From the NCBI GenBank assembly GCA_002713215.1, contig PAVO01000055.1, forward strand, positions 1 through 64,000: a stretch of DNA of 64,000 nt, given 5' to 3'. Made by a program: the position numbers and the translations under genes. Shown one piece after another: positions 51,537 through 54,633 of the stretch. The stretch's first letter is position 1, and each line of letters opens with the position of its first letter. The notes beneath the pieces were generated by a model. That model made no database searches. It had not been told where the DNA came from and worked only from the letters and a program-made list of their open reading frames with translations. This stretch comes from Crocinitomicaceae bacterium (GTDB lineage Bacteria > Bacteroidota > Bacteroidia > Flavobacteriales_G > Salibacteraceae).

Positions 51537-51731
51537 ATGAAAAAAGGAACAGTTAAGTTCTTCAATGAAACCAAAGGATTTGGTTTTATTACTGAGGACG
51601 AATCCGGAGAAGAGTACTTTGTACATGTCTCTGGTATTATCGATGAAATTCAAAAGGGTGACACCGTTGAATTCGATTTGAAAGAAGGTAGAAAAGGAAT
51701 GAATGCCGTTGATGTAAAACAGGCAGATTAA
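51537..51731 (+). CDS. cold-shock domain protein (CspA family)
   Basis: A 64-aa single-domain cold-shock protein. It shows GTVKFFNETKGFGFI (RNP1-like) and EYFVHVSGI (RNP2-like), the nucleic-acid-binding surface, and a full five-strand OB fold for its size. It binds single-stranded RNA or DNA and acts as an RNA chaperone. It is a single-gene unit with promoter box at 51506-51513 and a strong terminator at 51754-51788. It converges with the outer-membrane gene at 51794. Confidence 0.95.
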   Translation: MKKGTVKFFNETKGFGFITEDESGEEYFVHVSGIIDEIQKGDTVEFDLKEGRKGMNAVDVKQAD

Positions 51732-52625: not shown

Positions 52626-53390
52626 CTACTTCCTGAATCCTAATATTAAATTGCGCTGAATCAATTCGTCAACAATCGGTATCGACTTGTCCACTAATTC
52701 AGATTTAGAAATATCTGTAAGTTTTTTTGATTGGTCGTAAAGAGCGCCCGACAACTGCCCACCGTAATCATTAATATTCATTAAAGCTTCACCAAAAAGT
52801 GGAGACAGTTGAATATACCTGACTTTAAGTTCGTCCAGGTTACGAAATACCGCCAGGTAATAGACACCTTTTAAATCTACCATGTCATCATATTGATTGG
52901 TAAAAACCGGATACGACAATTTTAGAGCTCTTCGGTGAGGGTTTAATACTGCTGTTCCATTCTCGAAATTACCATTATGGGGGGTATCAGCTATTTCAAT
53001 ATCGGGTTCACTGTACAATTCGATTTCAATCCATTCGAAAAGCAATAGATCAGCCAGAAACGGTATCTCCAATTGAACTTGTTTCTCGTGCTCAAGCACA
53101 TAATTCATAAACTCTCTGGGCATTCTCCATACCTGGTAGTTTTGGCAACTATGGCTTGAAAAAAACCGAGCTACCAAGCCCTTCCAGGAGTTTGAAACTA
53201 CCTTTCTGGCAATTGGGAAGGCAGAACTTAAGGTATCGAAAATCACGTTGAAAACCAATCGTCGATAATGAGGAAGTCTCTCTGGTCTTGCCCCGGTAAT
53301 ATCGGTCAGAATACCCGAACGAACGTATTCAGCCAATTCAGATTGAACCCTTTGGGTATCGTTTTTCAATTTTGAAGTTGAGGAGTCCAA
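52626..53390 (-). CDS. DUF2063 protein, HvfC/BufC-type RiPP partner
   Basis: A 254-aa protein. The start is a TTG at 53390, inside the maturase gene (25-bp overlap); no in-frame ATG is near and a stop lies just upstream. The N-terminal half matches DUF2063 (HvfC/BufC): a helical bundle with LAEYVRSGILTDITGARPERLPHYRRLVFNVIFDTL, followed by an FFSSHSCQNYQVW stretch and an acidic beta-rich C-terminus. In known systems this protein binds the precursor leader and the DUF692 enzyme, allowing cysteine modification. The tight overlap with the DUF692 gene supports the same role here. Confidence 0.88.
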   Translation of the reverse strand: MDSSTSKLKNDTQRVQSELAEYVRSGILTDITGARPERLPHYRRLVFNVIFDTLSSAFPIARKVVSNSWKGLVARFFSSHSCQNYQVWRMPREFMNYVLEHEKQVQLEIPFLADLLLFEWIEIELYSEPDIEIADTPHNGNFENGTAVLNPHRRALKLSYPVFTNQYDDMVDLKGVYYLAVFRNLDELKVRYIQLSPLFGEALMNINDYGGQLSGALYDQSKKLTDISKSELVDKSIPIVDELIQRNLILGFRK

Positions 53391-54193
53391 TGCTTCTTAG
53401 TTATGTTTTTTAATTGAGACAATTCTCCCTCCAATCTTTGCAATTCTGGAATATTAAAATCCCGCTCCAAGAGAACAGGAACCGGATTTATTCGCTGCAC
53501 TGTCCAATCAAATAATTCGAATACCGGATCTATAATGTCTTTTCCGTGTGTATCAATTATTAAATCCGATTCAATTTGTTCGTGTCCTGCCATGTGCACG
53601 TAGGCTACCTTTTCCAAGGGTAAAGAATTAATAAACTCTTTGGTATCATAGCCATGATTAAAGGCATTGACATAAACATTGTTAACATCTAAAAGCAATT
53701 TGCAACCGCTTTCATTAACAATGGAACTGACAAACTCAGCTTCTGTCATTTCTGAAGCTACTGCTGTATAATAGCTCACATTTTCAAGTACCAAAGGTCT
53801 TTCCAAAATATCCTGAACCTTATTGATTCTACCTACAATGTGCTTAACTGCGTCTTCTCTAAAGGGAATTGGTAGCAGGTCATATAAATGGGCGTTTTCA
53901 CATTTGCTGTAGGACAAATGCTCGGAATATATATCTACCTGATAATGATCGAGGAATATTCTTAGGTCTTTCAGAAATTCAAAATCCAGTTCTTCCGGGC
54001 TACCAATACTCAACGATAAACCATGGCAAACAAGCGGGTATTTTTCAGTTGCTAAATCAAATTGTTGCTTCCAGTAACCTCCCATCTTCATCCAATTCTC
54101 AGGGGCTACCTCAATAAATTCAGGTAATTCATTCTGAGACTGAATCATGTCTGCTGCTATATCTCTTCTAAACCCTAGTCCTATTCCTTGCAT
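53366..54193 (-). CDS. DUF692/MNIO enzyme, HvfB/BufB-type RiPP maturase
   Basis: The start is taken at the ATG at 54193 (MQGIGLGFRRD); a TTG three codons earlier is less likely. The 275-aa protein is a DUF692 TIM-barrel enzyme of the MNIO class (multinuclear non-haem iron). Conserved residues for the iron cluster are visible: H58 (CHGLSLS), E91-H92 (SEHLS), E137-N138 (LENVS), D169 and N171-N172 (DVNN), H200 and H204 (VHMAGHE), D214 and H216 (DTHG), E243 (LLERDF). MNIO enzymes turn precursor Cys into oxazolone/thioamide or thiooxazole groups with O2. It lies between the precursor gene and the DUF2063 partner. Confidence 0.93.
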   Translation of the reverse strand: MQGIGLGFRRDIAADMIQSQNELPEFIEVAPENWMKMGGYWKQQFDLATEKYPLVCHGLSLSIGSPEELDFEFLKDLRIFLDHYQVDIYSEHLSYSKCENAHLYDLLPIPFREDAVKHIVGRINKVQDILERPLVLENVSYYTAVASEMTEAEFVSSIVNESGCKLLLDVNNVYVNAFNHGYDTKEFINSLPLEKVAYVHMAGHEQIESDLIIDTHGKDIIDPVFELFDWTVQRINPVPVLLERDFNIPELQRLEGELSQLKNITKKHWTPQLQN

Positions 54194-54200
54194 ATTGAGC

Positions 54201-54228
54201 AAAAAAAACCCCGCTAATTGCGAGGTTT
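54201..54228 (-). terminator. intrinsic terminator between precursor and maturase genes
   Basis: On the minus strand AACCTCGC and GCGGGGTT (one mismatch) are followed by eight T. It lies after the precursor stop at 54247 and just before the maturase start at 54193. Partial read-through would give more precursor than enzyme. Confidence 0.8.
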
Positions 54229-54246
54229 AAATCAAATTCGATAATT

Positions 54247-54633
54247 CTAGTGTTCTCCACATTTACCTTCTCCGCACTTACCTTCTCCACATTTGTGTTC
54301 GGTAGCTTTTCCTTCAGTAGCTTTTTCTTCTTTCTTTTCAGCTTTCTTATCTTCTTTTGCTTCAGATTTTTTTTCTTCCGCCTTTTCAGCTTTTCCTTCA
54401 CCACATTTGGCTTCGCCGTCTTTTCCTTCTCCGCATTTAAGCTCAACTTCTGAGTTGCTTACAAATCCCGAAGGTGACTCAGTCAATAATTGACTTCTTA
54501 ACTCACCGGCAGTACCTAAATCGTTTACTTCAAATAGATCTACTCCATTTGCGTTTGCTCCAGCTGCAGATATTGCTAAGGCCCCTGTAGCTAATGCTGC
54601 TAATTTTTTTGAAATTCTTTTATCCTTCTCCAT
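54247..54633 (-). CDS. Cys-rich EGKCG-repeat RiPP precursor (HvfA/BufA-like)
   Basis: A 128-aa precursor with an N-terminal export signal (about 1-28, a KKLAALATGALAISAAGANA run). The acidic leader-like part has LFEVNDLGTAGELRSQLL. Five Cys lie in CGEG/CGEH motifs in two blocks: C67 and C77 (KCGEG...KCGEG), then after a Lys/Glu-rich spacer of about 35 residues C115, C120 and C125 (KCGEGKCGEGKCGEH). Known HvfA/bufferin precursors have EGKCG repeats near the C-terminus that DUF692 enzymes modify to metal-binding groups. It is followed by the DUF692 gene (past a terminator) and the DUF2063 gene, so the assignment is firm; the split core and charged spacer are unusual. Confidence 0.88.
   Translation of the reverse strand: MEKDKRISKKLAALATGALAISAAGANANGVDLFEVNDLGTAGELRSQLLTESPSGFVSNSEVELKCGEGKDGEAKCGEGKAEKAEEKKSEAKEDKKAEKKEEKATEGKATEHKCGEGKCGEGKCGEH

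What the first reader, a model, noticed from the sequence alone, without database searches (positions are those of the whole stretch)
52626..54633. RiPP cluster with a two-block EGKCG core in a Bacteroidota genome
Seen: a signal-bearing precursor with five Cys in CGEG/CGEH motifs, split into a weak block (C67, C77) and a strong block (C115, C120, C125) by a Lys/Glu-rich spacer of about 35 residues, next to a DUF692 enzyme and a DUF2063 partner. Known: HvfA/bufferin systems with this gene set make metal-binding peptides by modifying EGKCG cysteines. Inferred: the two blocks could be modified to different extents or bind two metal ions, and the spacer could be a linker or be removed.
Basis: partly seen in the sequence, partly recalled or inferred. 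Interest (0 to 1): 0.82.

Follow-up and report, generated by a model that had tools for sequence, protein, structure and literature searches.

The report
Ordinary copper-peptide cluster, conserved hairpin inside
This is a Bacteroidota version of a known three-gene system that probably makes a secreted copper-binding peptide; its two cysteine blocks follow a common plan, and the less expected features are a conserved transcription-stop-like hairpin between the peptide and enzyme genes and relatives that keep the peptide without the enzyme.

Summary
In detail: a 128-aa precursor (54247-54633, minus strand; Cys 67, 77, 115, 120, 125; 37-residue Lys/Glu-rich spacer) is followed by an MNIO enzyme (DUF692, HvfB type) and a DUF2063 partner. 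It is of the known HvfA/oxazolin/captophorin kind (5-thiooxazole copper peptides), for which multi-block precursors are published. In the window's family, 20 of 20 loci with both enzyme genes have 2-4 Cys blocks; the five syntenic ones have two. A sixth syntenic locus, without enzymes, has one block. The 'weak' block is a repeat run whose middle Cys is Asp72 here. So the plan is conserved, not chance, and not new.

Two side results are more interesting. (1) A terminator-like hairpin lies between precursor and enzyme gene in 20 of 20 family loci, against 8 of 58 control gaps; all 20 stems differ, suggesting selection, perhaps for partial termination giving excess precursor. (2) One genus of the family (3 of 3 held genomes) keeps 2-3 EGKCG proteins with no MNIO found, one of them beside a GMC oxidoreductase pair. 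EGKCG motifs therefore do not prove modification. Modification, copper binding and termination are inferred, not shown.

The parts
54247..54633 (-). precursor gene (hvfA-like), 128 aa
   Evidence: NCBIfam NF050137 14.1 bits, below its cut-off 19.5
54550..54633 (-). putative Sec signal peptide, residues 1-28 (Ala-Asn-Ala at 26-28)
   Evidence: read by eye; family alignment shows the same layout; no predictor run
54496..54537 (-). conserved leader motif LFEVNDLGTAGELR (family LF..xDLGSGxELR and variants), residues 33-46
   Evidence: of 30 aligned sequences L39 is invariant and the columns of residues 40, 42 and 46 are Gly, Gly and Arg in 90% or more; the window itself has Ala at 42
54391..54438 (-). 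Cys block 1, residues 66-81 (C67, C77); the position of the middle Cys of relatives is Asp72 (codon GAC, 54418-54420)
54292..54402 (-). Lys/Glu-rich spacer, residues 78-114
54250..54294 (-). Cys block 2, residues 114-128 (C115, C120, C125)
54201..54228 (-). intrinsic-terminator-like hairpin (9 bp stem, 5-nt loop, run of T) between precursor and MNIO gene
   Evidence: stem at 54206-54228
53366..54193 (-). MNIO (DUF692) maturase, HvfB type
   Evidence: PF05114; NF003818 HvfB 392.8 bits, cut-off 360; conserved residues
52626..53390 (-). DUF2063 + RRE-like partner (PME type 1, HvfC-like)
   Evidence: PF09836; NF050145 111 bits, below its cut-off 142; predicted fold matches 3DEE and TglI

Best explanation
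A captophorin/oxazolin-type RiPP cluster. The precursor is made with a Sec signal and a conserved leader stretch; the HvfB-HvfC pair most likely converts Lys-Cys pairs in the KCG repeats to copper-binding 5-thiooxazoles before export; the peptide then most likely buffers copper in the envelope. The charged spacer is most likely a flexible linker that stays in place. Block 2 (three repeats at 5-residue spacing) should be modified fully; block 1, whose middle Cys is Asp72, perhaps only in part. A terminator-like hairpin between the precursor and enzyme genes most likely lets many transcripts stop after the precursor, giving much precursor and little enzyme. Shown here: gene set, enzyme signature residues, partner fold (predicted), conserved block plan, conserved hairpin. 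Inferred: modification, copper binding, export, partial termination.
For: Family models. In an 11-row HvfB alignment H57, H92, E137, D169, N172, H200, D214, H216, E243 and D245 are invariant; I recall these as the ligand and base positions of MNIOs. Counterparts are visible against 3BWW over most of the protein, and against TglH and an MbnB chain for the C-terminal half that phmmer aligned. The Lys-Cys-type marks named in PMC13097082 (Arg-Arg, Asp-Phe) are present as R9-R10 and D245-F246. HvfC model pLDDT 87.6, best PDB match 3DEE E 2.8e-6, then TglI. The precursor is directly upstream in all 20 family loci. Hairpin 20 of 20 against 8 of 58 control gaps (Fisher 1.6e-12); 20 different stems, median base-pair identity 0.27. 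The eight MNIO-free EGKCG genes examined also end in such a hairpin, so it appears to belong to the precursor gene, and the enzyme genes would depend on read-through.
Against: No product, expression or metal data. The precursor and HvfC fall below NCBIfam cut-offs. No DoxX gene lies in the cluster; the four DoxX hits are on other contigs. EGKCG proteins exist in family genomes without MNIO, so the motif alone does not prove modification. Hairpins are less frequent outside the family: 7 of 24 loci by the same criterion. The 20 loci are related, so the Fisher value overstates independence.
Confidence: 0.78

Rival explanations
1. Only block 2 is a working core; block 1 is decaying and stays unmodified, or serves only as part of the leader.
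For: Asp72 (GAC) stands where 4 of 4 syntenic relatives have Cys (TGC or TGT); a one-repeat FonA peptide was not modified in vitro (PMC13097082, section 12); first blocks with a single Cys occur in 4 of 20 family precursors; in the MNIO-free genus block 1 of the Sec-type protein is the degraded one in 2 of 3 genomes.
Against: A first block is present in 20 of 20 family precursors, with 2 or 3 Cys in 16 of 20, 26-35 residues after the leader motif. Characterised precursors with several cassettes are modified throughout (PMC13097082, PMC12538549).
Confidence: 0.3
2. The peptide works as a plain thiol metal buffer and modification is optional.
For: Four of 24 EGKCG-bearing genomes of the order lack MNIO, among them 3 of 3 held genomes of one genus with 2-3 EGKCG proteins each (relaxed search).
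Against: In the window and 19 other family genomes the MNIO pair is kept beside the precursor; in a phylum sample of 395 genomes all 8 EGKCG genomes also had an MNIO match.
Confidence: 0.12
3. The hairpin is not a partial terminator but an RNA end-stabiliser or a block to enzyme translation; or it is a full terminator and the enzyme genes have their own promoter.
For: The run of T lies 3-29 nt before the enzyme start codon in 19 of 20 loci; no transcript data.
Against: Little room for a promoter after the hairpin. No TAnnTTTG box (the flavobacterial -7 consensus, passages of PMC9723704) in any of 20 gaps; but the same box was found upstream of the precursor in only 1 of 20, so that scan has no power.
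Confidence: 0.3

Closest known systems
Oxazolin (HvfABC, Haemophilus influenzae)
   Same: Order precursor-MNIO-DUF2063 partner; Sec-type precursor with several KCGEGKCG blocks; HvfB model passed over its cut-off.
   Different: Host phylum; leader motif LF..DLGSGxELR; no DoxX in the cluster; hairpin between hvfA and hvfB (the H. influenzae gap was not examined here); precursor and HvfC below the NCBIfam cut-offs.
Fontiphorin (FonABC) and captophorins (PMC13097082)
   Same: EGKCG 5-mer repeats in separate blocks (FonA peptides with 2, 3 and 2 modified repeats); enzyme residues Arg-Arg and Asp-Phe.
   Different: Block 1 here has an Asp in place of the middle Cys; product unknown.
Bulbicupramide (MmrABC, Microbulbifer, PMC12538549)
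   Same: Core in cassettes set apart by Lys-rich stretches, 5-8 Cys.
   Different: Three two-Cys cassettes in the strain studied, against two unequal blocks here.
Buf_EGKCG/oxazolin precursor class (PMC12452194)
   Same: Repeated EGKCG motifs, Sec signal, PME type 1 partner; about 2,000 proteins of 31-506 residues, mostly Pseudomonadota.
   Different: Spacers between blocks run 13-44 residues in the family, not a fixed 17-residue repeat.

Membership tests
MNIO-PME1 (captophorin/bufferin) RiPP cluster | MNIO enzyme of family PF05114 with ligand residues | tested here: met
   344 bits; His/Glu/Asp/Asn positions invariant in 11 of 11, counterparts against 3BWW and, for the C-terminal half, TglH and MbnB; which residues bind iron is recalled
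MNIO-PME1 (captophorin/bufferin) RiPP cluster | PME type 1 partner: DUF2063 plus RRE domain | tested here: met
   PF09836 54.6 bits; C-terminal NGO1945_C only 17.9 bits, cut-off 27; predicted fold matches 3DEE and TglI over 212 and 274 alignment columns
MNIO-PME1 (captophorin/bufferin) RiPP cluster | gene order precursor, MNIO, partner | tested here: met
Lys-Cys (EGKCG) subgroup | Arg-Arg near the N-terminus and Asp-Phe near the C-terminus of the MNIO | tested here: met
   R9-R10 and D245-F246 in the window protein; second Arg in 8 of 11, Phe in 10 of 11 aligned rows
HvfA family (NCBIfam NF050188, NF050137) | score over the curated cut-off | tested here: not met
   15.8 against 95 and 14.1 against 19.5 bits; 30 of 30 aligned precursors match both models at E up to 1, cut-offs not listed per member
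HvfB family (NCBIfam NF003818) | score over the curated cut-off | tested here: met
   392.8 against 360 bits
HvfC family (NCBIfam NF050145) | score over the curated cut-off | tested here: not met
   111.4 against 142 bits; 3 of 9 HvfC proteins tested pass, the window's among the 6 that do not
Captophorin | 5-thiooxazole product that binds copper | not testable with these tools
   needs mass spectrometry or NMR
Captophorin | Sec signal peptide on the precursor | tested here: inconclusive
   typical layout by eye, conserved in the family; no predictor run

The most novel reading that the evidence does not exclude
EGKCG cysteine blocks have a function of their own that does not need the maturase. 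In one genus of this family (3 of 3 held genomes) two EGKCG proteins are kept by descent, one of a lipoprotein type, with no MNIO found and no DUF2063 match over the cut-off; at the likely positional counterpart of the hvfA locus (shared DUF2147 neighbour) the enzyme pair is absent and a Gluconate_2-dh3/GMC oxidoreductase pair lies downstream. The MNIO step would then be a later or dispensable refinement of a thiol metal buffer, or another enzyme replaces it.
Probability: 0.35. Interest if true: 0.68.

Novelty: new member of a known kind. Interest (0 to 1): 0.42.

Why it matters
It extends the copper-peptide class in a Bacteroidota family and gives a natural substrate with an internal Asp in place of a Cys, which tests whether these enzymes need adjacent repeats. 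The conserved hairpin offers a concrete, testable answer to how such clusters could make much precursor with little enzyme. The MNIO-free genus offers a natural knock-out in which the role of unmodified EGKCG cysteines can be tested.

Tried and rejected
Block 1 as chance: rejected, a first block is kept in 20 of 20 family precursors. A conserved single-block precursor in close relatives: one single-block case was found (G025, L086:4507-4761). It lies in the window's own synteny (the three upstream neighbours match at 43-54% identity) but has no HvfB or HvfC beside it, and its genome has no MNIO match; I count it as a reduced orphan, not as a refutation. A second precursor in the own genome: an exact DNA pattern for KCGE(G/A)KCG found only this gene; diverged copies could be missed. 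A Bacteroidota promoter box (TAnnTTTG) upstream of the precursor or in the gap: not above shuffled expectation, uninformative. Conserved operon partners: neighbours follow local synteny within sub-groups, not the cluster. Loci L062-L072, L002, L060 and L061 have a PF05114-type enzyme at 30-41% identity but no tblastn match to the window's HvfC and were left out; a distant partner could be missed. Sequence search of HvfC against the PDB found nothing at E up to 0.1; the fold comparison did. Literature: searches on terminators in RiPP, lantibiotic or bufferin operons listed nothing on this class, but only part of the hits was listed in three of them (12 of 12; 15 of 73; 12 of 20; 12 of 26). 'terminator' and 'hairpin' occur 0 times in the main texts of the four MNIO papers searched by 'find'.

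Alignment A1 held 30 of the 45 precursors; left out were L047, L050-L057 and L074-L079. Of 46 loci with HvfB and HvfC, L073 has no precursor upstream; its genome carries the motif on another contig. L028 and L030 precursors were trimmed to a later Met; L038 lacks an intact start in frame.

Full report
What is there. The three genes lie at the stated place on the minus strand: a 128-residue precursor, 53 nt later an MNIO (DUF692) gene whose likely start is ATG 54193, and a DUF2063 gene overlapping its end by 25 nt. Pfam and NCBIfam name the enzyme HvfB type (PF05114 344 bits; NF003818 392.8 bits, cut-off 360) and the partner DUF2063 (54.6 bits); the precursor and partner stay below the NCBIfam cut-offs for HvfA and HvfC.

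Relatives. The window's family is held with 35 genomes, of which 20 have PF05114. All 20 loci (window and L022-L040) have HvfB, HvfC and a KCG-repeat precursor directly upstream. Joining cysteines at most 10 residues apart, 8 of 20 precursors have two blocks, 10 three and 2 four; the first block has 3 Cys in 7, 2 in 9 and 1 in 4. The four loci that share the window's upstream neighbours and have the enzymes (L023, L026, L027, L035) all have two blocks: 3+3, 2+3, 3+1, 3+3. A fifth syntenic relative (G025, L086), without enzymes, has a single block. Where the window has Asp72, 4 of 4 of these enzyme-bearing relatives have Cys; in three of them block 1 reads KCGEGKCGEGKCGEGK against KCGEGKDGEAKCGEGK in the window. 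So the 'weak' block is most likely a triple repeat that lost its middle Cys. A leader motif of the type LF..DLGSGxELR precedes the first Cys by 26-35 residues in all 20.

Is the plan new? No. FonA gives peptides with 2, 3 and 2 modified repeats (PMC13097082: outline, sections 7, 12 and 14 and passages). MmrA has three cassettes with six thiooxazoles (PMC12538549: passages). HvfA has three AEGKCGEGKCG motifs and six modified Cys (PMC13419390: outline, introduction and passages). The class survey PMC12452194 (outline, sections 14, 15, 20 and 21 and passages) describes long repeated EGKCG precursors, mostly in Pseudomonadota. The modification of oxazolin has been reassigned to 5-thiooxazole (PMC13097082, PMC13419390).

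Enzyme and partner. In an 11-row alignment the positions that I recall as MNIO ligands are invariant, and the window has the Arg-Arg and Asp-Phe marks that PMC13097082 links to Lys-Cys substrates (second Arg in 8 of 11 rows, Phe in 10 of 11). The HvfC model (16 sequences, pLDDT 87.6) matches 3DEE (E 2.8e-6), TglI (8.9e-6) and, weakly, MbnC (0.1). In a tree of 43 HvfB proteins the ten Pseudomonadota rows stand apart (99/96); the window's family does not form one clade, nine rows joining Ignavibacteria-type rows (93/84, below the mark for firm support), which suggests transfer; the tool warns of long branches.

Hairpin. The gap between precursor and MNIO gene carries an inverted repeat followed by T (stem 54206-54228). 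With one criterion (at least 6 pairs, -9 kcal/mol or lower, at least 5 T in 8) it is found in 20 of 20 family gaps, against 8 of 58 other co-directional gaps of 40-130 nt from the same loci and the window (ORFs of at least 100 aa with ATG); with the run of T within 35 nt of the next start the figures are 20 of 20 and 5 of 58; 7 of 9 convergent gaps show it, as expected of terminators (Fisher 1.6e-12 and 2.7e-14). This criterion was loosened on T and stem after a first version had found 24 of 45 loci, 19 of the 20 family loci (L029 missed), and 13 of 450 shuffles. The 20 stems are all different, with a median base-pair identity of 0.27 (highest 0.9), and the run of T starts 3-29 nt before the most upstream in-frame ATG of hvfB in 19 loci; in L023 an in-frame ATG lies inside the hairpin. 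Outside the family it is seen in 7 of 24 loci: 3 of 5 Bacteroidales, 2 of 7 Ignavibacteria-type (L045 and its duplicate L077 both without), 1 of 10 Pseudomonadota, 1 of 2 others. All eight MNIO-free EGKCG genes examined end in such a hairpin as well. The reading: structure kept while sequence turned over, hence selected; it goes with the precursor gene; most likely partial termination with read-through into the enzyme genes. That is inference; the loci share ancestry and no transcript data exist here.

EGKCG without MNIO. Over the 42 genomes of the order, the exact KCGEGKCG DNA pattern occurs in 24 and PF05114 in 21; 20 have both, one (G041) has only an MNIO of another group, and four (G001, G014, G020, G025) have EGKCG without MNIO. 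A search at E up to 10 still found no MNIO in these four, with G017 as a positive control, and no DUF2063 match over the cut-off (weak hits: G001 E 0.3, G025 E 0.009). G001 is a single contig, listed as 97% complete; G025 is listed with 7% contamination. G001, G014 and G020 are one genus; each has a Sec-type EGKCG protein followed by Gluconate_2-dh3 and GMC oxidoreductase genes and preceded, divergently, by a DUF2147 gene (Pfam on representatives; the others by BLAST), plus a lipobox EGKCG protein (lipobox by eye); G001 has a third EGKCG protein. DUF2147 also lies beside hvfA in L029 and L031, which have the MNIO, hence the reading of positional descent. The C-terminal EHKCGEGKCGGQ is identical in all three Sec-type proteins while much of the rest has diverged, and block 1 is degraded in G014 and G020. 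PMC12452194 already counts 67 of 2,583 Buf_EGKCG genomes without MNIO (Table 3), so such orphans are known as rare cases; a conserved genus-wide set was not seen in the parts of the papers that I read. In a phylum sample of 395 genomes all 8 with the pattern also had an MNIO match, which speaks for a usual link between the two.

Verdict. The hairpin and the MNIO-free genus are the parts worth following.

Noticed in passing
window 54201-54228 and L022-L040, gap between precursor and MNIO gene: Terminator-like hairpin in 20 of 20 family loci, all stems different in sequence, against 8 of 58 control gaps.
   Followed up: yes
L133-L139 (G001, G014, G020): One genus without detectable MNIO keeps 2-3 EGKCG proteins per genome; one beside Gluconate_2-dh3 and GMC oxidoreductase genes, one of a lipobox type.
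   Followed up: partly
L086:4507-4761: Orphan precursor of 84 residues in the window's synteny, with leader and a single block (first Cys is Ser), a terminator-like hairpin after it, no HvfB or HvfC nearby.
   Followed up: partly
L028, L030, L032, L034, L036-L040, upstream of the precursor: A gene of one cluster (representative L037: Sigma70_r2 and r4_2) precedes the precursor in 9 loci, so an ECF-type sigma factor; in 7 of these 9 a small ORF with an H-x3-C-x2-C motif lies between, without a Pfam hit in the one tested, perhaps an anti-sigma factor. No member of that cluster was found near the window's precursor.
   Followed up: partly
HvfB tree: L028, L030, L032, L034, L036-L040: Nine family HvfB proteins join Ignavibacteria-type rows (93/84) rather than the window's part of the tree, suggesting transfer between distant groups.
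   Followed up: no
L038 upstream of 5586: The precursor frame has a stop between an apparent start and the signal-like stretch: sequencing error, other start codon or broken gene.
   Followed up: no
window 51537-51731: A cold-shock protein gene (PF00313) on the opposite strand downstream of the cluster, overlapped by a minus-strand ORF.
   Followed up: no
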